Source: Fusobacteriaceae bacterium
Lineage (GTDB): Bacteria; Fusobacteriota; Fusobacteriia; Fusobacteriales; Fusobacteriaceae
NCBI GenBank assembly: GCA_031289425.1
Contig: JAITPM010000093.1
Location: 1 to 57,822 of the forward strand
Direction: 5' to 3'
Length of the DNA stretch: 57,822 nt
This document shows, piece by piece, positions 8,860-25,531 of this stretch. Under the pieces are notes generated by a model, which did no database searches, was not told the DNA's origin, and worked only from the letters and a program-made list of their open reading frames with translations. The translations under genes were made by a program, and so were the position numbers. Within the stretch, counting starts at the first letter, position 1. The number at the start of each line of letters is the position of its first letter.

Positions 8860-10152
8860 TTATTTCTTATAAAGTTTTACTATAGGAACTGCTTTGGAAT
8901 CTTTTTTTTCTTTATCGTTTAATTGTTCTTGTTCTTTTTCCAACATTGCATAAATATCTACAAGATTTGGTAATTTTATAATTTTTTTTTCTTGTTTTTT
9001 ATCATTTGAGCTTTCCGATTGATCTTTTTCAACATTATTATTTAAAACCTCTTTTAACTCTGTTTGTTCTTTTATATTTTCTTTTATATTTTCTTTTATA
9101 CTTTCTCTTATATTTTCTGTGTTAATCTCCTTTACTATTTCGTTTTTTATTTCATTTTTTATTTCATTCATCAATTCTTCTTTTAGTTCTTCTCTGATTT
9201 TTTCTTTTATATTATTTGTTAAATTACTATTATTTTTATTATTTTTATTATTATTTTTGTTTTCACCTGCAATTTTGATTATATTAAATTGTTTATCCGA
9301 ATTTGTTATTTCTATTTTAGGTTTTCTTTCTTTCCCCACGAAATAATCAAAACTATTAACTAAATCATTTTTATTTTTTTCAAATTCTGATCTTCCAATT
9401 TTCATTACTCTTTTTTCTTCTTTTTTATTTTCTTCCTTTTTATTTTCTTCTTTTTTAATTTCTTCTTTCATTTCATTTCCCGCATTGTTAATGATTTCAT
9501 TTATTGCTAAAGTCTCTATTTTAATTGATTGTTTTTCATTATTTTTTTCTTTATTCTCAGTTCCGCTAGCTTCTATTTTCGCTTCTTTTCTCTTTAATGC
9601 GATCTCAGAATTCATTCTTTCCTTTTGAATGTATTCTCTATATAAATTTACTATCCACTTTATCAGGGGATATACAAAAGAAATAGTAATTGATAATAAT
9701 AGAATTCCGACAAGTCCAGTATAAACAATTAAATAATTAAATTTAGATAATAAAAGATAAAACAGGTATGCAGGTATATACCCTATTTGATTTTTAAATA
9801 AAGTTATATTTATGGAATTTCTTAACAACGTTTGATCAGCTATTTTATTCTCAAATGGTATCTTCAGTTGAATCATAAAATATAGGTATACCACACAAAG
9901 GCTTCCTATAATTATAAATTCTACACTTATCGGGAAAAGTTTCCTTTTATCACTGGATATCACAAAACTTAAAATCAAATTTATACCTATAAGCAAACCA
10001 ATTAAAATCCAAATTTTTCCTATATACATGTCTATGTACAAAAAAAATTTTATATTTTCAAGTGGCCCTTCCAAGAAAAAATCAGCCAAAAGATATAGGG
10101 AAATCCCCATACATATATATTTGGGTTTAAAAAAATCAATTATTTTTTTCAT
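8860..10152 (-). CDS. FtsK-N-like 4-TM membrane protein without ATPase motor
   Basis: 430 residues. Four hydrophobic helices (about 12-27, 44-66, 76-95 and 138-165) make up the first 170 residues. The stretch GYIPAYLFYLLLSKFNYLIVY resembles the end of the FtsK/SpoIIIE 4TM domain. The remaining ~255 residues are charged and of low complexity. They include KKEEN pentapeptides near residues 230-247 and IKNE/NIKE four-residue repeats near 320-360. The end is KLPNLVDIYAMLEKEQE and a short basic tail. FtsK has the same layout of membrane domain, variable linker and 'LP-x-L' element before its motor. Here the gene stops, and maf follows only about 45 bp on, so no motor domain is encoded. Neighbours are mreB and scpB. 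An unrelated membrane protein is the alternative. Confidence 0.5.
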   Translation of the reverse strand: MKKIIDFFKPKYICMGISLYLLADFFLEGPLENIKFFLYIDMYIGKIWILIGLLIGINLILSFVISSDKRKLFPISVEFIIIGSLCVVYLYFMIQLKIPFENKIADQTLLRNSINITLFKNQIGYIPAYLFYLLLSKFNYLIVYTGLVGILLLSITISFVYPLIKWIVNLYREYIQKERMNSEIALKRKEAKIEASGTENKEKNNEKQSIKIETLAINEIINNAGNEMKEEIKKEENKKEENKKEEKRVMKIGRSEFEKNKNDLVNSFDYFVGKERKPKIEITNSDKQFNIIKIAGENKNNNKNNKNNSNLTNNIKEKIREELKEELMNEIKNEIKNEIVKEINTENIRESIKENIKENIKEQTELKEVLNNNVEKDQSESSNDKKQEKKIIKLPNLVDIYAMLEKEQEQLNDKEKKDSKAVPIVKLYKK

Positions 10153-12901: not shown

Positions 12902-14617
12902 TTATTTTATATCGTATGGAAAATATTTCATAGGTCTAAAATAATAATCCTTGTTTAATTCAAGTTCATTCAAATGATTTATAAGATTTGCAAAAGGAAC
13001 ATTTTCCTCAAAAAACGAATTCAATCCTGAAACTGTAGTAATTTCGATCACTGAATAATCCGGTAATTTCAGATTCCTAGCTAGGTCTTCGATACATTTT
13101 GACAACCCGCCTATTTCATCTACGAGCCCATTTTTCATAGCATCTGAGCCCAACCAAACTTTACCTTGACCAATTTTATGTACATCTTCCTTTTTGAGTC
13201 TTCTTCCTGTTGCTACTGCCGTTAGGAAGTCCTCATATACAGCCTCACTAGATTTATATAATTTTTGAGCCTTTTCCACATTAAATGCTGTGAAAACAGA
13301 ATATAGATCTGAATAATTACCTTTCTTAATCGTCTCAATATTTATGTTCCCTTTTTCATCCAATAGTTTTGAAAAATTAGGTATGAGGCTAACGACTCCT
13401 ATCGAACCTGTGACACTATTTCTGTCAGCATATATTTTTGTTGCATAAGCGGAAATATAATACCCACCTGAAGCTGCTGTCCCACCTATTGATACATATA
13501 CCGGCTTATATCGACCTACCTCTTGTACTTTATTAGCGATAATATCAGAAGCTATCGCCGACCCTCCAGGTGAATTAACTCTTAGAACGATTCCCTTTAT
13601 GCTGATGTCATTTTTAGCCTTTTCTAAATCAGTAATTATTGCTTCCGGATAAATATATCCTCTTGCTCTTGTTTTAGTATCAATTATTTCTCCTTCAGCA
13701 GTAATGATTGCAATCTTATTTCTATTTGTAATTTTTGGTGATATAGTATTCGCAAGCATGTATTTATTTATACTTATCACATTATTTCCAAATTGTCTCT
13801 TAAATTCTTCATAATATATAAGCCCGTCTATCATTTGGATTTCTAAAAGTTTTTGAGGAGAAGACGCTACTAAATCTCCATTTAATATTTTATTTTCAAA
13901 TTTATCTTTATTTTGTGCCCTTTTTATTGAAATATCATTGATAAAATCTTTATATATTTTATCATATATTTCTGTCAAGTTCTCTCTAAACTCATTTGAC
14001 ATCCTACTTTTAGTATAATTTTCTCCATATGACTTATAATCCCCCACATGGATCACATTAAAACTAACCCCTATTCTATCCATAAAATTTTTATAGTACT
14101 CCAATTCTAGATAATATCCGGTAATATCTACAGAAGCACTGGCAGAAGGTGGCATCATAATCTTATCTGCTTGGATAGCGAACCAATAATTTCTATTGTT
14201 CATCCTAGTAGTGTGGGCATATATTTTCTTGCCGTTAGCCTTAATCTTTTGTAGAATTTCTGATAATTCTTCTATTTGACCATAATTTAATCCCATTCTA
14301 TCCAGCTTCAAAATTATTCCATTTACTGAAGGATCTCGACTTATTTCATTTAAGGTTTTTATTATAGTATAAAAGCTAATCTCTCTCTCATTGAAAAAAT
14401 TGGGGATATTCGTCCTCTTTTCCATAATTCTTCTGGAAAAATCTATTTCAACATAGGTATTTCTAGCGATAGTAATTTCCTTATTAAATTTCTTTGCAGA
14501 AAATACACCTATCAAAGAAACAATAACCAAAAGAAGTAAAAATATTTTTATAAAAAATGAGATTATTTCTTTTACTATAAAAAGTAACCCTCTTAAAATG
14601 AAATTAATAATTTTCAA
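12902..14617 (-). CDS. sppA: Signal peptide peptidase SppA, long (67K) type
   Basis: 571 residues with an N-terminal membrane anchor (about 10-43) and two tandem peptidase S49 repeats, as in the E. coli 67K form. The catalytic dyad is visible: K195 in GDYKSYGE in the first repeat and S383 in AASGGYY in the second. SppA degrades signal peptides left in the membrane after secretion and faces the outside of the inner membrane. The start is TTG, 4-5 bp after GGAGGA. It follows pepF by 28 bp in one transcript, which suggests joint peptide turnover. Confidence 0.95.
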   Translation of the reverse strand: MKIINFILRGLLFIVKEIISFFIKIFLLLLVIVSLIGVFSAKKFNKEITIARNTYVEIDFSRRIMEKRTNIPNFFNEREISFYTIIKTLNEISRDPSVNGIILKLDRMGLNYGQIEELSEILQKIKANGKKIYAHTTRMNNRNYWFAIQADKIMMPPSASASVDITGYYLELEYYKNFMDRIGVSFNVIHVGDYKSYGENYTKSRMSNEFRENLTEIYDKIYKDFINDISIKRAQNKDKFENKILNGDLVASSPQKLLEIQMIDGLIYYEEFKRQFGNNVISINKYMLANTISPKITNRNKIAIITAEGEIIDTKTRARGYIYPEAIITDLEKAKNDISIKGIVLRVNSPGGSAIASDIIANKVQEVGRYKPVYVSIGGTAASGGYYISAYATKIYADRNSVTGSIGVVSLIPNFSKLLDEKGNINIETIKKGNYSDLYSVFTAFNVEKAQKLYKSSEAVYEDFLTAVATGRRLKKEDVHKIGQGKVWLGSDAMKNGLVDEIGGLSKCIEDLARNLKLPDYSVIEITTVSGLNSFFEENVPFANLINHLNELELNKDYYFRPMKYFPYDIK

Positions 14618-14645
14618 TTGTCCTCCATAAAATTATATAAAAAAT

Positions 14646-16835
14646 TTATTTTAACTTCGCTAATTCTTCTTCTAATAAGTCCAATAACCTATCGAATTCT
14701 TTACCGACAGCATCAAAACTCTCCAATTTACCAAGATCTACTCCTGCTTTTTTGAGCTGCGCCATAGGGTTATCGTTTCCACCTGATTTCAATAATTCTA
14801 TATACTCATCAATTGTTTTTTTCCTTTCTTCTTCAGTATATTTTGGATTAGTGATTCTATCATACAAATTGGCCGAGCTTGCAAAACTTGTAGCATATTG
14901 GTAAACATAATAAGGTGAATTATAAAAATGTGGAATTCTTGCCCAAATTATCTTCTGTAATTCATCTATTTCCAAAACATCCCCAAAGTATTCTTTGAAT
15001 AATGTATCCATAATTTCACTCAATGCTTCCGGAGTAACAGGTTTTTGATCTTCTATTAATTTATGAGCCTGATATTCATAATTAGCAAATAATGTTTGTA
15101 TATAATAAGTGCCAACTATATTTCCCAAAGCTTGTTCCAATAATGCTATTTTTTCTTTCGGATCAGTGCTTATATTTATCATATAATCCAATAATAATCT
15201 TTCATTAAACGTAGAAGCGACTTCTGCTACAAATATAGTATAATCAGCCGTAGAGTAGGGTTGAGTCTCATGAGACAACATTGTATGCAAAGTATGACCC
15301 AATTCGTGAGCCAATGTAAATACATCGTCCATAGTAGATTGATAATTTAATAACATATAGGGATGCACACCGTATATTCCTATTGAATATGCTCCACTTC
15401 TTTTATTTTCTGTTTCAAAAACGTCCAGCCAACCTTCGCTTATCGCTCTATTTAATTTATTTGCATAATCCTCTCCCAATGGAGCAACTGATTTTTTGAC
15501 TATTTCTTTGGCTTCATCATAAAGAAATTCTCTTTTATAATCCACTATATTTATAGAATTATCATAATAATGATATTTATCTAGAGAAAGTGCTTTTTTT
15601 CTGATAGTAATATATCTTTTTAGAGGTTCCGTATTGTTTTTTGCTGAGCTTAGCAAAGTATGATAAACAGAAACATCTATATTTTTAGGTTCCAATGCTT
15701 TTTCCAAAGAAGATGCGTAATTTTTAGCTTTTGCAAGAGCCACATCCCTTTGAAGTAAGGATCTGTAAATAGCACAATAAGTATTTTTGTTATCTTCGTA
15801 AACTCCATAAAGTGCTTCAAAAGCTTTTCTTCTGTCTTCTTGATTTCTATTTGTTGATAAAATTTTTGAATAAACTCCGTTTGTAGCTGCCCCTTTAAAC
15901 CCGTCTGATAATTCTATTTCTTTGAACTTTATATCGGATATTGATAATTCACTATATACATCATGAGGCGTTCCCAAATATTGACTGAAATAAGATATTA
16001 ATTTTTCTTTATCTTCATCTAACACATGTTTTTGAAGTCTAAATAATTCTTTAATTCCAAATTTATGAGATTGTAGCTCTATATTTTCAGCTATCCACTT
16101 GTCAATTGTTTCTTCTTCTATTTCTAACATTTCAGGTGTTATCCACGCAGTATTTACTCCATACTCTGCCACAACAGCTTCTATTTTTTGCAATTTTTCA
16201 GAAGCAATCGTATCCTTTGAATTCAAATCCTTTGTCATATATGGGTATACATACAATTTTTCAACAATTTTTGATAATTCTTCTTCCAATAATATTAATT
16301 TTACAAAATCATTGGAATTTTCTTTTATTTTTCCTTTGTATATGGGAACTTCTTTCATTAATTCTCTGGCTTTTGTTAAATCATTTTCCCATTGTTCCCA
16401 ATTTGCGTAGATATCGTTTAAATTCCATTTATATTTTTGTTCTACTTCTTCTCTTTTCATAATTTTATTTCCTACCTCTTTTTTTGTTTTTTCTTCTTTT
16501 ATCTCTTCTTCTTTTATTTCTTCTTCTTTTATTTCTTCTTCTTTTATTTCTTCTTCTTTTATTTCTTCTTCTTTTGTCTCTTTTTCTTTTATCGCTTCTT
16601 CTTTTGTCGCTTCTTCTTTTGTCGCTTCTTCTTTTGTCTCTTCTTCTTTTATATTTTCTTTCTGGTCATTGTTTTCATTTTCTAGTGGCTTTTCAACTTG
16701 AATTTTCTCATTGGAAATTTTTAATTTTTTAAACAAAAACTCTTCTAGTTTATTATCTCCGCCAAAGAAAACTCCACTTACAACTCCAATTATTAAGATA
16801 GCAGTAGCTAATGGAATAAATAAAAATTTTTTCAT
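14646..16835 (-). CDS. pepF: Membrane-anchored oligoendopeptidase F with KE-repeat spacer
   Basis: 729 residues, about 125 longer than ordinary PepF. Residues 4-26 form a membrane helix after MKK, which predicts the rest lies outside the membrane. Residues 63-120 are about twelve pentapeptides of the type KEEEI/KEEAT. The normal PepF start (KREEVEQKYKWNL) follows at about 126. The M3 metallopeptidase motif is intact: H510-E511-x-x-H514 in AHELGHTLH, with a downstream Glu in FVAEVAST. The C-terminus and thimet-oligopeptidase fold look complete. Family PepF enzymes are usually cytoplasmic and cut short peptides. AGAGGGG precedes the ATG. Confidence 0.93.
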   Translation of the reverse strand: MKKFLFIPLATAILIIGVVSGVFFGGDNKLEEFLFKKLKISNEKIQVEKPLENENNDQKENIKEEETKEEATKEEATKEEAIKEKETKEEEIKEEEIKEEEIKEEEIKEEEIKEEKTKKEVGNKIMKREEVEQKYKWNLNDIYANWEQWENDLTKARELMKEVPIYKGKIKENSNDFVKLILLEEELSKIVEKLYVYPYMTKDLNSKDTIASEKLQKIEAVVAEYGVNTAWITPEMLEIEEETIDKWIAENIELQSHKFGIKELFRLQKHVLDEDKEKLISYFSQYLGTPHDVYSELSISDIKFKEIELSDGFKGAATNGVYSKILSTNRNQEDRRKAFEALYGVYEDNKNTYCAIYRSLLQRDVALAKAKNYASSLEKALEPKNIDVSVYHTLLSSAKNNTEPLKRYITIRKKALSLDKYHYYDNSINIVDYKREFLYDEAKEIVKKSVAPLGEDYANKLNRAISEGWLDVFETENKRSGAYSIGIYGVHPYMLLNYQSTMDDVFTLAHELGHTLHTMLSHETQPYSTADYTIFVAEVASTFNERLLLDYMINISTDPKEKIALLEQALGNIVGTYYIQTLFANYEYQAHKLIEDQKPVTPEALSEIMDTLFKEYFGDVLEIDELQKIIWARIPHFYNSPYYVYQYATSFASSANLYDRITNPKYTEEERKKTIDEYIELLKSGGNDNPMAQLKKAGVDLGKLESFDAVGKEFDRLLDLLEEELAKLK
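16476..16649 (-). repeat. 15-bp tandem repeat in pepF (KEExx pentapeptides)
   Basis: About twelve tandem copies of a 15-bp unit, reading TTCTTCTTTTATTTC on the plus strand, in frame within pepF. The copies in the middle are identical; those at the 5' coding side have changed to encode KEEAT. Unit loss or gain keeps the reading frame. Confidence 0.9.
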
Positions 16836-16872
16836 AAAATTTCCCCTCTTTTATTTTTTAGTTGACAAAAAT

Positions 16873-16882
16873 ATTATACCAT
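16873..16882 (-). promoter_or_regulatory. Extended -10 promoter of pepF-sppA
   Basis: On the minus strand TTATGG-TATAAT gives a perfect -10 box (16878-16873) with an extended TGG. No convincing -35 box lies 17 bp upstream. Position fits the pepF start about 38 bp downstream. Confidence 0.5.
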
Positions 16883-16890
16883 AAAGTGTA

Positions 16891-18207
16891 TCATTTGTCT
16901 TGTGGTAATATTTTATTTAGCACAATTCCTACTACAGCAGCTATTGATAGACCGGATAAAGATACTGTCTTCCATACCCCTATTTCATTTACCGCAATTC
17001 CTAATACGAATATAAGTGCCGCAATTAGGAGGTTTCTAGAATTTGAAAAATCCAATTGAGCCTCCACTAAAATCCTTACTCCAATGGCCGCAATCATTCC
17101 GAACAATATGATAGAAATCCCACCCATAACAGGTGCAGGAATAGTTTGAAGCATTACCCCAAATTTACCTAAAAATCCGAGAACGATCGCATAAACGGCC
17201 GCAATCCTTAATACACTTGGGTCATATATTTTTGTAACAGCTAAAACTCCAGTATTTTCTCCGTAAGTAGTATTTGATGGTCCACCCAATAGCCCCGCTA
17301 TAGATGTAGCCAATCCATCTCCAATTAAAGTCCTATGCACACCCGGTTCTTCGAAGAAATTTTTATTTACCACAGCTCCATTCGTTGTGATATCTCCGAT
17401 ATGTTCAATAAAAGTTACTAAAGCTATGGGAGCAATTGCTAATATAGCCGTCAGCGAAAAAGTAGGAACAGTTTTTAGAATTCCTATCGCTTCTCCGGAA
17501 AGACCTACCCAATTTGCTGAAGTTATAGCCTTTAAATCGACCATACCAAAGAATAGAGAAACTAAATACCCTATTATTACGGATATCAATATTGGAACCA
17601 ATCTAAAAAATGAATGTTTCATAATTGATATAATAATCATAGAAATCACCACAATTGACGCTACAAAAAAATTCCTACCACTGAAAACTCCATTTTGATA
17701 CATTGCCATATTTATAGCTACCGGGCTTAATCTAAGGCCAATTACCATTATAATCGGGCCAGTAACCACAGGTGGAAAAAATGATTTTATTTTCTCAGCA
17801 CCATATATTTTGACAAGCAATGCCATTAGCAAATATACGAGCCCAGCACATATCACACCGCCCTTCACTGCAGCGACCCCCATTGTCTTTAATACCATCT
17901 GCAAAGCCCCTATAAAAGCAAATGAGGATCCCAAAAACACAGGAACAATTCCCTTCGTGCACAGATGAAATACTAAAGTACCTATACCCGCTGTTATCAA
18001 TGCTAGAGAAGGATTCATATTTGTCAGAGCAGGTACCAAAACGGTAGCACCAAACATGGCTAACACATGCTGAGCTCCCAATACAAGCTTAGTCTTTGTC
18101 CCAATATTAATTTCTTTTATTTTTTTGTTTTCTATCTTTTTATCTTCTATTTTTTTATCTTCTATCTTTTTGTCTTTTATTTTTTTATCTACTTTCACTG
18201 AACTCAT
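16891..18207 (-). CDS. uraA: Uracil permease (NCS2 family)
   Basis: 438 residues. NCS2/UraA proteins carry uracil into the cell with protons. The QH motif (Q46-H47), E268 in FIEH and the family signature E317-N-x-G-x-x-x-x-T-K326 are all present, with 12-14 hydrophobic segments. Residues 7-31 before the first helix are pentapeptides of the type KKIED, an unusual Lys-rich cytoplasmic tail. AGGAGG precedes the ATG. It is a single gene, followed after about 55 bp by pepF. No PyrR-type attenuator was seen in its short leader. Confidence 0.92.
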   Translation of the reverse strand: MSSVKVDKKIKDKKIEDKKIEDKKIENKKIKEINIGTKTKLVLGAQHVLAMFGATVLVPALTNMNPSLALITAGIGTLVFHLCTKGIVPVFLGSSFAFIGALQMVLKTMGVAAVKGGVICAGLVYLLMALLVKIYGAEKIKSFFPPVVTGPIIMVIGLRLSPVAINMAMYQNGVFSGRNFFVASIVVISMIIISIMKHSFFRLVPILISVIIGYLVSLFFGMVDLKAITSANWVGLSGEAIGILKTVPTFSLTAILAIAPIALVTFIEHIGDITTNGAVVNKNFFEEPGVHRTLIGDGLATSIAGLLGGPSNTTYGENTGVLAVTKIYDPSVLRIAAVYAIVLGFLGKFGVMLQTIPAPVMGGISIILFGMIAAIGVRILVEAQLDFSNSRNLLIAALIFVLGIAVNEIGVWKTVSLSGLSIAAVVGIVLNKILPQDK

Positions 18208-21278: not shown

Positions 21279-21301
21279 GTCTTAAAAGGGTGATAAAAAA
21301 T

Positions 21302-24300
21302 ATGGTTAAATTCTATATTGGTGTAGATGTTGGTTCTACTACTATAAAAATTGTATGTTTAGATGAGAATAATAAATCTGTATATTCTTTGTATCAAAGA
21401 CATTTATCAAGCGTGAGAGAAACCACTAAAAATTTGGCGTTAGAATTTTTAAACCATATGAAAAAAGAATACGGCGATAACATTTGTTATAAAATATGCC
21501 TTACTGGTTCCAGTGGAATGGGAATCGCTGAATATACTAATTTGCCCTTTGTCCAAGAAGTTATTGCATGCATAGAATCAATACAAAAAAATATACCTGA
21601 TACAGATGTAGCAATCGAATTGGGTGGAGAAGATGCAAAGATTACATTCCTCAAGGACAATATGGATCAAAGAATGAATGGTAGCTGTGCAGGTGGCACG
21701 GGAGCTTTTATTGATCAGATAGCTACTTTGATCAACACAGATGCTGCCGGACTCAATGAATTGGCTAAAGGCTATGACACTATTTATCCTATAGCTGCAA
21801 GATGTGGTGTATTTGCAAAGACTGATATTCAACCGCTTTTAAATGAAGGAGTCAAAAAAGAGAATATAGCAGTATCTGTTTTGCAAGCTGTAGTAAATCA
21901 AACGATTACAGGACTTGCAGGTGGTAAAAAAATAGCCGGTAAAGTCGCATTTTTAGGCGGTCCACTTTATTTTTTGAGTGAGCTTAGAAAACGCTTTATT
22001 GAAACTTTAAAATTGGCTGATGAAAATATAGTTTTTCCAGAAAGTTCTCAATTATTTGTAGCATACGGAGCAGCTATGTATTCAAGAGAAAATTCTTTGG
22101 ACTTTTATCCTGATGATTTGCAAAATAAAATTCTGCTTTTAAATCAAAATGAAATGTCCGATACTTCGAGGTTGCCTCAATTATTTAAAAATGAAGAAGA
22201 GTTGGCTTTATTTAAGGAGAGGCACAATAAAGAAATTGTATCTACTGAGGATTTGAAAACCTATAAAGGTGATGTTTTTCTAGGTATTGATGCCGGTTCG
22301 ACTACTATGAAGACTGTCTTAATATCTGAAAACAATAAAATTTTACATTCATTTTATTCTAACAATAATGGAGCTCCCTTAGAGACTATTATAAGTTCCT
22401 TGAAGGAATTGTACAAATTACTTCCGGAAGGTGTTATTATCCGATCATCTTGTGTTACCGGATATGGAGAGAGCCTATTACAGACAGCATTAAAAATCGA
22501 TATCGGTATTGTAGAAACTATGGCTCATTATCAAGGGGCAAAGTTTTTTAGAGATGATGTAGATTTTATTTTGGATATAGGCGGACAAGATATGAAATGT
22601 CTGCGAATAGAAAACGGTATAATAACTTCGATACTTTTGAATGAGGCGTGTTCTTCCGGATGTGGCTCCTTTCTCGAAACATTCGCGAAATCTCTTGACC
22701 TAGGCATAGAAGAATTCGCAAAATTGGGTCTTACTGCGAGGGCTCCGGCGGATCTAGGTACCAGATGTACCGTCTTTATGAATTCGAAAGTCAAACAATC
22801 TCAAAAAGATGGCGTCAATGTAGGTGATATATCGGCCGGACTTTCATATTCTGTAATAAAAAATACTTTATTTAAGGTTATAAAAATAAAAAATAAAGAA
22901 GAACTGGGAAAAAATATAGTGGTTCAAGGTGGTACTTTTTTAAATGATTGTGTTTTACGTGCTTTTGAATTGGTATCAGAAAGAGAAGTAATCAGACCAA
23001 ATGTAGCCGGACTGATGGGAGCCTTTGGAGCCGCACTTATAGCAAAAGAAAAAGCAAAGGAAAAATCTACAATTTTATCCTATAATGAATTGGATAAATT
23101 TTCATATACTTCAAATCTTGCTCGTTGTGGTCTCTGTACAAATAAATGTCTGCTTACCATAAATAAATTTGAAGATGGAAGTAAATTTATATCTGGAAAC
23201 AGATGTGATAACCCGCTCGGCAAATTAGACAAAAAAAACGCACCAAATATGTTTGAATACAAATACAACAGAATATTCAATTATATCCCATTAGAAGCCA
23301 GTCAAGCCACAAGAGGCGAAATTGGTATACCTCGAGTTTTGAACATGTACGATTCTTATCCATTTTGGTTTACACTTTTGACTGAGTTGGGATTTAGAGT
23401 GATTTTATCTTCTGATTCTTCCAAAACTCTCTACGAAAAGGGAATAGATACCATATCTTCTGATTCTATTTGTTATCCGGCGAAATTGGTTCATGGTCAT
23501 ATCATTGATCTGGTGGAAAAAGGTGTAAAAAAGATTTTTTATCCCTGTGTGATGTTTGAAGAAAAAGAATCAAACAAATCTCAAAATCAATACAATTGCC
23601 CCATTGTGATGTCATACCCCGAAGTTATCAAAAATAATTTGGACATTCTCAAGGAGAAGCAAGTCGAAATCTTCACTCCTTTTTTCTCCTTGGCAGATAA
23701 AGATGTAATAATAAAAACTGTGATTGAAGAATTCCATATCTTTGGCGTAACACGCTATGAGGCCAAAATAGCTGTAGAAAGAGCATTAAGAGAAAAATAT
23801 AATTACAGACGAGACTTAAGAAACAAAGCTATTGAAATAATAGATGATTTAAACAGAGAAGGCAAACCCGGAATCGTAGTAGCCGGACGCCCTTACCATT
23901 GTGATAAAGAAATACATCATGGTATTCCGAATATAATAAATTCATTTGGAATGGCTGTGCTGACAGGAGATGCTGTAGCCTCTCTCACGTCCGTAGGCGA
24001 AGATCTGAGGGTTATAGATCAATGGACTTATCATTCACGGCTTTATCGGGCTGCGACCTATGTAGGTAAATCTAAGAACTTAGAATTAATAGAATTAAAC
24101 AGCTTTAGCTGCGGTCTTGATGCGGTTACCACTGACCAAGTGGCAGAAATTTTGTCAAATCACGGTAAGACCCATACCTTACTTAAAATAGATGAAATAA
24201 GTAATTTGGGCGCTATAAAAATCAGACTTAGAAGTTTATTGGCCGCATTGGAATACAAAAAAAATAAAATTGCCAATACAATTAAGAAAAAAATATATAT

Positions 24301-25531
24301 AAAAATGCCTTTTACAAAAGAAATGAAGAAAGATTACACTATCTTGGTACCTCAAATGGCTCCTATGCATTTTGATTTATTAAAAATAGCTTTTTCAAAA
24401 TCCGGATATAACTTAGAAGTTTTGGGAGAAAATAAAAATGCCTTAGATTGTGGGCTAAAATTTGTAAACAATGATGCCTGCTATCCATCTATTTTAGTTA
24501 TTGGAGAATTAATATCAGCATTGCAATCCGGTAAATATGACCAAAACAAAGTCGCTGTCATGATTTCACAGACTGGCGGAAGTTGTAGAGCTACCAATTA
24601 TGTAGGTTTTTTAAAAAAAGCTATCAAAGATGCCGGATTTGAACATGTTCCTATTATATCTCTAAATGTTTCTGGATTGGAAAAACAGAAGGGATTTAGC
24701 CTTAACCTATCTCTTATCAACAAAAGCATGATTGCCCTCTCCTATGGGGATTTGCTTATGAAACTAGTATATAGTGTCAGACCATATGAAAAAATAAAAG
24801 GTGCGACAAATGAACTATATAGATATTGGAATGAAAAAATAAGAGATAGCATAGAAAGTGGGAAATTTAGTTATTATAAGAAAAATGTACAAAATATAGT
24901 GGATGATTTTACAAAGATAGATGTTACCGGCGAAAATAAGATAAAAGTCGGAATCGTAGGCGAAATATTGGTAAAATTCAGCCCATTTGCAAATAATTAT
25001 TTGGCGGACTACATAGAAAAAGAAGGCGGAGAAGTATACACATCCAGTCTTATAGGGTTTGTAAAATATTGTATATACAGTGATATTTTTACAACTAGAA
25101 AATTTAAGGGGAAAATCGCTACATTAAAATTACATGCAGCTTTGATGTTTATAAATAGATATACTTCTGTTATAAATAATGCCCTAAAAAAATATAAAGG
25201 TAGATTTATGCTGGAAAATCCTATACAAGAAACTGCAAAAATAACCTCTAAATTTATATCAATTGGTCATCAATCTGGCGAAGGTTGGTATTTACTTGGA
25301 GAAATGATAGAATTTATAGAACATGGTGTCGGTAATATAGTTTGTACTCAACCTTTCGGATGTCTTCCCAATCATATTACAGGAAAGGGTATGATAAAAA
25401 AATTGAGGGAATCTTTTTCAAACGCCAATATAGTTCCTATTGACTATGATCCGGGATTTTCTGAGGTAAATCAAATAAACAGAATAAAGCTTATGTTGTC
25501 TGTTGCCAAAAAAAATTTAAATAAAATATAA
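21302..25531 (+). CDS. 2-hydroxyacyl-CoA dehydratase activase, fused multidomain type
   Basis: 1409 residues. Two BadF/BadG/HgdC-type ATPase domains come first (about 1-260 and 320-590). Each has the DxGSTT phosphate motif, a GGEDAK or GGQDMK motif, and both cluster cysteines: SCAGGTG with ARCGVF in the first, ACSSGCGSF with TRCTVF in the second. A Cys-rich segment (RCGLCTNKC) and a DUF2229/HgdA-like region fill the rest. Known activases use ATP and a [4Fe-4S] cluster to push an electron into a dehydratase; the long fused forms have no settled substrate. ATG 21302 follows AAGGGTGAT; a GTG at 21290 lies within that site. It is probably cotranscribed with the HAD gene. Confidence 0.88.
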   Translation: MVKFYIGVDVGSTTIKIVCLDENNKSVYSLYQRHLSSVRETTKNLALEFLNHMKKEYGDNICYKICLTGSSGMGIAEYTNLPFVQEVIACIESIQKNIPDTDVAIELGGEDAKITFLKDNMDQRMNGSCAGGTGAFIDQIATLINTDAAGLNELAKGYDTIYPIAARCGVFAKTDIQPLLNEGVKKENIAVSVLQAVVNQTITGLAGGKKIAGKVAFLGGPLYFLSELRKRFIETLKLADENIVFPESSQLFVAYGAAMYSRENSLDFYPDDLQNKILLLNQNEMSDTSRLPQLFKNEEELALFKERHNKEIVSTEDLKTYKGDVFLGIDAGSTTMKTVLISENNKILHSFYSNNNGAPLETIISSLKELYKLLPEGVIIRSSCVTGYGESLLQTALKIDIGIVETMAHYQGAKFFRDDVDFILDIGGQDMKCLRIENGIITSILLNEACSSGCGSFLETFAKSLDLGIEEFAKLGLTARAPADLGTRCTVFMNSKVKQSQKDGVNVGDISAGLSYSVIKNTLFKVIKIKNKEELGKNIVVQGGTFLNDCVLRAFELVSEREVIRPNVAGLMGAFGAALIAKEKAKEKSTILSYNELDKFSYTSNLARCGLCTNKCLLTINKFEDGSKFISGNRCDNPLGKLDKKNAPNMFEYKYNRIFNYIPLEASQATRGEIGIPRVLNMYDSYPFWFTLLTELGFRVILSSDSSKTLYEKGIDTISSDSICYPAKLVHGHIIDLVEKGVKKIFYPCVMFEEKESNKSQNQYNCPIVMSYPEVIKNNLDILKEKQVEIFTPFFSLADKDVIIKTVIEEFHIFGVTRYEAKIAVERALREKYNYRRDLRNKAIEIIDDLNREGKPGIVVAGRPYHCDKEIHHGIPNIINSFGMAVLTGDAVASLTSVGEDLRVIDQWTYHSRLYRAATYVGKSKNLELIELNSFSCGLDAVTTDQVAEILSNHGKTHTLLKIDEISNLGAIKIRLRSLLAALEYKKNKIANTIKKKIYIKMPFTKEMKKDYTILVPQMAPMHFDLLKIAFSKSGYNLEVLGENKNALDCGLKFVNNDACYPSILVIGELISALQSGKYDQNKVAVMISQTGGSCRATNYVGFLKKAIKDAGFEHVPIISLNVSGLEKQKGFSLNLSLINKSMIALSYGDLLMKLVYSVRPYEKIKGATNELYRYWNEKIRDSIESGKFSYYKKNVQNIVDDFTKIDVTGENKIKVGIVGEILVKFSPFANNYLADYIEKEGGEVYTSSLIGFVKYCIYSDIFTTRKFKGKIATLKLHAALMFINRYTSVINNALKKYKGRFMLENPIQETAKITSKFISIGHQSGEGWYLLGEMIEFIEHGVGNIVCTQPFGCLPNHITGKGMIKKLRESFSNANIVPIDYDPGFSEVNQINRIKLMLSVAKKNLNKI

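What the first reader, a model, noticed from the sequence alone, without database searches (positions are those of the whole stretch)
12902..16835. Anchored, outward-facing PepF paired with SppA
Ordinary PepF is a soluble cytoplasmic oligopeptidase. Here it has MKK plus a membrane helix, then about 60 residues of KEExx repeats, then an intact HELGH enzyme. It is cotranscribed with SppA, whose active site faces out. The pair could cut and finish off signal peptides or external peptides at the membrane surface, which would suit an amino-acid-fermenting organism.
Basis: partly seen in the sequence, partly recalled or inferred. Interest (0 to 1): 0.58.

Follow-up and report, generated by a model that had tools for sequence, protein, structure and literature searches.

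The report
Peptidase with two starts, one membrane-anchored
One bacterial gene appears to make the same peptide-cutting enzyme in two versions, one tied to the membrane and one loose in the cell, by starting translation at two places, and this layout is conserved across the Fusobacterium family.

Summary
The window (Fusobacteriaceae) has a 729-aa PepF with a TM helix, a KEE repeat linker and an intact HELGH enzyme, 28 nt upstream of SppA. The extension is not unique: 48 of 88 Fusobacteriota PepF loci carry a hydrophobic N-terminal extension. Its TM stretch is under amino-acid constraint in several genera, and lipoprotein-type signals replace it in some species. The 'refuting' internal Met126 is also real. 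In 44 of 48 such loci an in-frame start beside the enzyme domain has a strong Shine-Dalgarno, and 44 of 48 have good ones at both starts. Strong SDs precede 45 of 91 in-frame but 4 of 130 out-of-frame start codons there. Best reading: one gene, two starts, giving an anchored (probably periplasm-facing) and a cytosolic PepF. The codon-level test supports this in g3, g14 and part of g5 but is neutral in the window's own genus. SppA linkage is common, not required: g5, g9, g12 and g4 mostly have the extension without it; g7 has linkage without extension. The signal-peptide clean-up role remains a guess. Localisation and translation are untested. New variant of a known kind (bacterial N-terminal proteoform pairs).

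The parts
14646..16835 (-). pepF long ORF, 729 aa: TM + charged linker + M3B oligoendopeptidase F
14646..16460 (-). short form from internal ATG (Met126): ordinary 604-aa PepF including the start Met
   Evidence: ATG with own SD; similar boundary as PepF of genera without the extension
16758..16826 (-). hydrophobic segment, residues 4-26 (predicted N-in/C-out anchor)
   Evidence: such a segment in 48 of 88 loci
16491..16660 (-). 15-bp tandem array, 11.3 copies, coding the KEE-rich linker (about residues 59-115)
16836..16850 (-). Shine-Dalgarno of the long start (AAGAGGGGAAATTTT)
   Evidence: -8.2 kcal/mol
16461..16484 (-). 24 nt before the internal start, holding its Shine-Dalgarno (AAAAAAGAGGTAGGAAATAAAATT)
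   Evidence: -8.2 kcal/mol; synonymous-codon p 0.036 for the fixed position, 0.27 for best-of-any
16873..16901 (-). promoter-like AAGACA-17-TATAAT at the 3' end of uraA, upstream of both starts; the same hexamers and spacing in G051 and G052
12902..14617 (-). sppA, 571 aa, TTG start, 28 nt after pepF
16891..18207 (-). uraA-type xanthine/uracil permease upstream; conserved neighbour in several genera

Best explanation
pepF is a two-start gene. Ribosomes starting at the upstream ATG make a long PepF with an N-terminal anchor and a flexible charged tether; Sec inserts it N-in/C-out, so the enzyme sits on the periplasmic face of the inner membrane. Ribosomes starting at the internal ATG (Met126), at its own Shine-Dalgarno, make the ordinary cytosolic PepF. 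One gene thus supplies oligopeptide cleavage in two compartments: trimming imported or signal-derived peptides outside, and recycling peptides inside. Shown: both starts carry strong, conserved initiation signals, and the TM stretch is under amino-acid selection in several genera. Inferred: that both starts are used, the topology and the substrates.
For: 48 of 88 PepF loci in the phylum have the hydrophobic extension; at least 6 state changes on a 66-row tree. TM pN/pS 0.17 (g14), 0.21 (g5, mortiferum type), 0.25 (g9), 0.47 (g3) against linker 0.56, 0.48, 0.68, 0.93. SD <= -7 kcal/mol at the long start in 46 of 48, at the internal start in 46 of 48, at both in 44 of 48. SD <= -8 before 45 of 91 in-frame versus 4 of 130 out-of-frame starts in the extensions, and before 2.0% of 661 in-frame ATGs inside the enzyme domain. 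Synonymous-codon resampling: median p 0.016 in g3 (12 loci), 0.0125 in g14 (7), 0.0035-0.011 in 4 g5 loci. G024 and G017 lack the extension and keep a short start with an SD (-12.2 and -6.0). Only one M3 peptidase (PF01432) in the window's genome. Anchor types turn over: lipobox-like signals in G016, G018 and G052. Promoter-like site upstream of both starts in all 3 genomes of the genus.
Against: No expression, N-terminal or localisation data. The synonymous-codon test is not significant in the window's genus (p 0.25-0.43, 3 loci), g9, g13, g10, G016, G003 or the other 7 g5 loci, because KE-rich codons give SD-like runs (12% of 3795 linker positions). Thinned to one locus per genus the frame contrast is 8 of 24 versus 2 of 36. 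In g25 the hydrophobic part shows no constraint (pN/pS 1.19, 3 loci). Cysteine content does not differ clearly by extension within the family (0.33 vs 0.54 per protein, 42 and 13 loci). pN/pS pools non-independent pairs. The extension is lost in several lineages, so it is not essential.
Confidence: 0.6

Rival explanations
1. Only the long form is made: PepF in these species is solely a membrane-anchored periplasmic enzyme, and the internal SD-like runs are by-products of KE-rich codons.
For: TM under amino-acid constraint; long-start SDs strong (46 of 48); synonymous test neutral in the window's genus, g9, g13, g10.
Against: Frame contrast 45/91 vs 4/130; significant codon choice at the internal SD in g3, g14 and part of g5; an internal start codon near the domain boundary in all 48; short-only relatives start near that boundary.
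Confidence: 0.2
2. Only the short form is made: translation starts at Met126 and the upstream frame is a leader without protein function.
For: Internal SD equal to or stronger than the long one in many loci; six g5 species lack a good ATG/GTG/TTG long start; the extension is dispensable in G024, G017, g6, g7.
Against: Amino-acid constraint and start-proximal Lys/Arg of the TM stretch; strong SD before the long start in 46 of 48; turnover to lipoprotein-type signals in g4 and G052.
Confidence: 0.12
3. The window's long PepF is a recent fusion of a small upstream membrane protein (a separate ORF in G051 and G052) with PepF, or an assembly artefact at the repeat, so it says little about the family.
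For: In G051 and G052 residues 1-121 of the window match a separate ORF of 119/221 aa, followed by a PepF with a different signal-like extension.
Against: Outgroup genera have the TM directly in frame with PepF at the same place after uraA; the separate ORF's N-terminus resembles those extensions (mean score 26.8-31.2) more than G051's or G052's own PepF extension does (4.4, 16.2), so a split in the G051/G052 stem is favoured. The frame is open through the array.
Confidence: 0.15

Closest known systems
Oligoendopeptidase F (TIGR00181, M3B; solved relatives 2qr4, 3ce2)
   Same: Whole catalytic protein from about residue 124-128 on, HELGH motif
   Different: Extra 125 residues: TM anchor and KEE tether; PepF is usually described as cytosolic (recalled)
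Surface PepF of Mycoplasma hyopneumoniae MHJ_0522 (PMC6787215, abstract and passages seen)
   Same: A PepF reported outside the cytosol, cleaving bradykinin, substance P and neurokinin A
   Different: The authors state that it lacks a translocation signal; here an N-terminal hydrophobic signal is encoded
Bacterial N-terminal proteoform pairs by internal initiation (PMC11005335, passages seen; cites Meydan et al.)
   Same: One gene, two in-frame starts; pairs such as PagC, OmpX and SseL differ by a targeting signal
   Different: PepF is not named in the passages read; here conserved over a family with changing anchors
SppA plus oligopeptidase A signal-peptide degradation in E. coli (PMC9360617, passages seen; Novak et al. 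cited there)
   Same: SppA and an oligopeptidase linked to signal-peptide clean-up (oligopeptidase A is an M3 enzyme, recalled)
   Different: There oligopeptidase A acts in the cytoplasm; here one form of the M3 enzyme would be on the SppA side of the membrane
Conserved AUA/AUU starts with extended SD in Staphylococcus aureus (PMC13009471, passages seen)
   Same: Weak start codon after a strong SD
   Different: Here proposed for the long PepF start in six g5 species, untested

Membership tests
Oligoendopeptidase F (PepF, M3B) | Full-length match over the curated cutoff | tested here: met
   TIGR00181 646.1 bits vs 490.55, residues 128-723
Oligoendopeptidase F (PepF, M3B) | HExxH zinc motif | tested here: met
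   HELGH 510-514; H510, E511, H514 invariant in 4 of 4 aligned
Oligoendopeptidase F (PepF, M3B) | Cleaves oligopeptides; cytosolic | not testable with these tools
   No assay; localisation is the open question
SppA (S49) | 67K-type match over the curated cutoff and Ser-Lys pair | tested here: met
   TIGR00705 319.4 vs 311.45; Lys and Ser align with 3bez (which residues are catalytic is recalled)
N-terminal proteoform pair (dual translation start) | Two in-frame starts, each with initiation signals | tested here: met
   Window -8.2 and -8.2 kcal/mol; 44 of 48 loci both <= -7
N-terminal proteoform pair (dual translation start) | Codon choice favours the internal SD | tested here: inconclusive
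   Met in g3, g14 and part of g5; not in the window (p 0.27 best-of-any, 0.036 fixed position)
N-terminal proteoform pair (dual translation start) | Both proteins detected | not testable with these tools
   Needs Ribo-RET or N-terminomics
Inner-membrane-anchored periplasmic enzyme | Positive N-terminus then hydrophobic segment, under selection | tested here: met
   (selection measured in other genera, not in the window's own)
Inner-membrane-anchored periplasmic enzyme | C-terminal domain located outside | not testable with these tools
   The structure model was too poor to add anything (mean pLDDT 56.6)

The most novel reading that the evidence does not exclude
Across Fusobacteriaceae a single pepF gene serves two compartments by dual translation starts, and evolution tunes the ratio through start codons: where the long start is weak (GTG, TTG, or the non-canonical ATA/ATT in six g5 species after a strong SD) the short one is ATG, and where the short start is GTG/TTG the long one is ATG (0 of 48 have both weak). 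The anchor is exchangeable (TM, lipoprotein-type), while the two-compartment layout is kept.
Probability: 0.4. Interest if true: 0.65.

Novelty: new variant of a known kind. Interest (0 to 1): 0.5.

Why it matters
Automatic start calling would give either a cytosolic or an anchored enzyme and hide the other. If both forms exist, a phylum with human-associated members has a conserved peptide-trimming enzyme outside the cytosol, and a family-wide, comparative example of a bacterial gene split between compartments by two starts. It also gives natural variants (ATG/GTG/TTG/ATA/ATT starts, lost extensions, changed anchors) with which to test how start-site competition sets protein localisation.

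Tried and rejected
Fusion in the window: my first reading, replaced by a split in G051/G052 after comparing outgroups. That comparison keeps the first three residues fixed and its shuffles destroy the hydrophobic pattern, so its z-values overstate; the contrast between the sets is what I use. G052's own extension also scores z 3.1.

Obligatory pairing with SppA: rejected. SppA is nearly universal (93 of 98 genomes), so its presence is uninformative.

Cysteine depletion as a sign of export: no clear contrast within the family.

Structure model: 4-row alignment, mean pLDDT 56.6; not used, and no fold search made.

Rows dropped: of 92 genomes with a match 88 loci were used, the window included; G058, G062, G063 and G064 were left out as weak matches, probable paralogues or fragments. 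The tree used 66 of 88: 3 fragments, 7 distant rows of g11/g26/g27, 10 of 13 g21 and 2 near-identical rows were dropped. The pN/pS script stopped with an error at g25, so g2 and g1 have no values; two g3 rows (L073, L075) had their long start set too far downstream there, corrected only. Long starts were set by hand for 13 of the 48 loci (6, 7). In G025 and G030 I chose the ATT/ATA as long start by its SD spacing; an in-frame ATG a few codons upstream with a weak SD (-3.2, -2.0) cannot be excluded. The Fisher p of 0.018 for the start-codon trade-off is not corrected for relatedness.

Paper searches that found nothing to the point, judged from listings: Fusobacterium with 'oligoendopeptidase F' (5 papers, none on this protein by title or abstract start), F. 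nucleatum vesicle proteomes (none), F. nucleatum TSS maps, general PepF export (which gave only the mycoplasma lead), two-form proteins, F. nucleatum peptidases. These cover open-licence PMC papers only.
Full report
WHAT IS THERE. On the minus strand lie uraA (16891-18207), pepF (14646-16835) and sppA (12902-14617). PepF has 729 residues: MKK, a 23-residue uncharged stretch (residues 4-26), a linker ending in a 15-bp tandem array (16491-16660, 11.3 copies) and a complete oligoendopeptidase F (TIGR00181 over residues 128-723, 646 bits; HELGH 510-514). SppA follows after 28 nt, with the Ser and Lys that align with Protease 4. A promoter-like AAGACA-17-TATAAT at the end of uraA is present with the same spacing in the two other genomes of the genus (read by eye in the sequences). 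The scan found 34 promoter-like sites against 24.9 expected, so only the conservation gives this site weight. PepF is the only PF01432 match in the genome.

WHOSE IT IS. The genome is in a three-species genus of Fusobacteriaceae. One congener (G052) appears to be the MAG record JAISST010000027.1, 'Fusobacteriaceae bacterium isolate Md513_bin107' (its contig length, 23,400, equals that of G052:C21).

THE EXTENSION IS A FAMILY TRAIT. Of 98 genomes of the phylum 92 have a PepF match. I examined 88 loci, the window included. In 48 the frame upstream of the enzyme domain holds a hydrophobic stretch (17-residue Kyte-Doolittle mean at least 1.7). They cover all examined loci of g1, g2, g3, g9, g10, g12, g13 and g14, 11 of 12 of g5, 2 of 3 of g4, and all 3 of g25 in the neighbouring family f4. 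It is absent from g6, g7, g8, the one g11 locus and the other f4 genera. On a 66-row tree the trait needs at least 6 changes. In g14, g9, g5 (mortiferum type) and g3 the TM stretch is under amino-acid constraint (pN/pS 0.17, 0.25, 0.21, 0.47), more than the linker (0.56, 0.68, 0.48, 0.93) and less than the enzyme (0.10, 0.05, 0.09, 0.17); in g25 it is not (1.19). G016, G018 and G052 match a PROSITE-like lipobox pattern (pattern recalled), so the anchor type changes.

THE INTERNAL START IS ALSO A FAMILY TRAIT. That Met (126) has a Shine-Dalgarno as good as the upstream one (-8.2 and -8.2 kcal/mol). In the 48 loci, with long starts set by hand for 13 of them, 46 long starts and 46 internal starts have SD <= -7, and 44 have both. 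The internal start is the best of the in-frame candidates, a choice that favours low values. In the extensions strong SDs (<= -8) precede 45 of 91 in-frame start codons but 4 of 130 out-of-frame ones; one locus per genus gives 8 of 24 and 2 of 36. Within the enzyme domain 2.0% of 661 in-frame ATGs have such an SD. Because KE-rich codons make SD-like runs by themselves, I resampled synonymous codons and repeated the best-of choice: the internal SD is stronger than codon usage predicts in g3 (median p 0.016), g14 (0.0125) and 4 g5 loci (0.0035-0.011), near significance in g25 (0.09), and not in g1, g9, g13, g10 or the rest of g5. For the window p is 0.27, or 0.036 if the position is fixed beforehand. 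The internal start is thus well supported for the family and only plausible for the window itself.

THE WINDOW AND ITS CONGENERS. In G051 and G052 the window's residues 1-121 match a separate ORF (119 and 221 aa), followed by a PepF with another signal-like extension. The separate ORF sits 55-92 nt after uraA, where the window's long start sits (59 nt), and its N-terminus resembles the extensions of other genera more than the PepF extensions of G051 and G052 do. The window therefore probably keeps the old layout, and its sisters split the gene and gained a new signal. A fusion in the window, or an assembly fault at the repeat, is not excluded.

START-CODON TRADE-OFF. Nine loci have a non-ATG long start; all nine have ATG as internal start. 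Seventeen have GTG/TTG inside; all have ATG outside (Fisher p 0.018, not corrected for relatedness). In G027, G028 and G029 the long frame has no ATG/GTG/TTG before the TM, and in G026 only a GTG with a weak SD (-2.4); an ATA stands at the Met position, 7-8 nt after a strong SD (-9.7 to -12.7). G025 (ATT) and G030 (ATA) look alike but have a weak upstream ATG. Conserved AUA/AUU starts after extended SDs, with about 10% of AUG output in poor medium, are reported for S. aureus (PMC13009471, passages seen). The long form would then be the minor one in these species.

SPPA. SppA is adjacent in 16 of 48 extension-bearing loci, within 7 kb in 8, absent from the fetched stretch in 20, and 4 have too little sequence. 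Of 40 loci without extension, 2 (g7) have it adjacent, 34 do not and 4 have too little sequence. SppA is present somewhere in 93 of 98 genomes. The neighbourhood is probably old, but the anchor does not depend on it. In E. coli SppA works on the periplasmic side and oligopeptidase A on cytoplasmic signal peptides (PMC9360617, passages seen), so a two-sided PepF beside SppA is an attractive idea without a test here.

MECHANISM. Step 1, transcription from a promoter upstream of both starts: inferred from sequence. Step 2, initiation at either start: inferred from conserved signals. Step 3, Sec insertion of the long form, N-in/C-out: inferred from MKK plus TM. Step 4, peptide cleavage by the same domain on both sides: from family knowledge. 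A surface PepF has been reported in a mycoplasma, without a signal (PMC6787215, abstract and passages seen). Pairs of bacterial proteins that differ by a targeting signal are known (PMC11005335, passages seen). This case is therefore a new variant of a known kind, notable for conservation over a family.

Noticed in passing
L048, L049, L050, L051 (G027, G026, G028, G029), upstream of pepF: The long PepF frame has ATA at the conserved Met position after a strong Shine-Dalgarno in 4 of 4 species; synonymous divergence of the TM part is low (pS 0.057 vs 0.362 in the enzyme), perhaps an RNA-level constraint.
   Followed up: partly
L042 and L043 (G051, G052), between uraA and pepF: A separate small membrane protein ORF with Ala/Lys/Glu-rich repeats (119 and 221 aa) whose 3' end overlaps the PepF reading frame.
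   Followed up: partly
8860-10152 (-): A 430-aa membrane protein (by eye) with a long Lys/Glu/Asn-rich tail and no Pfam match; KEE-rich stretches also occur at G000:C43.
   Followed up: no
21290-25531 (+): A 1413-aa ORF that looks like a fused 2-hydroxyacyl-CoA dehydratase activator type protein (recognised by eye, not searched).
   Followed up: no
L081, L082, L083 (g4), between uraA and pepF: A 159-aa ORF resembling S-ribosylhomocysteine lyase LuxS (by eye) lies between uraA and pepF in 3 of 3 g4 loci.
   Followed up: no
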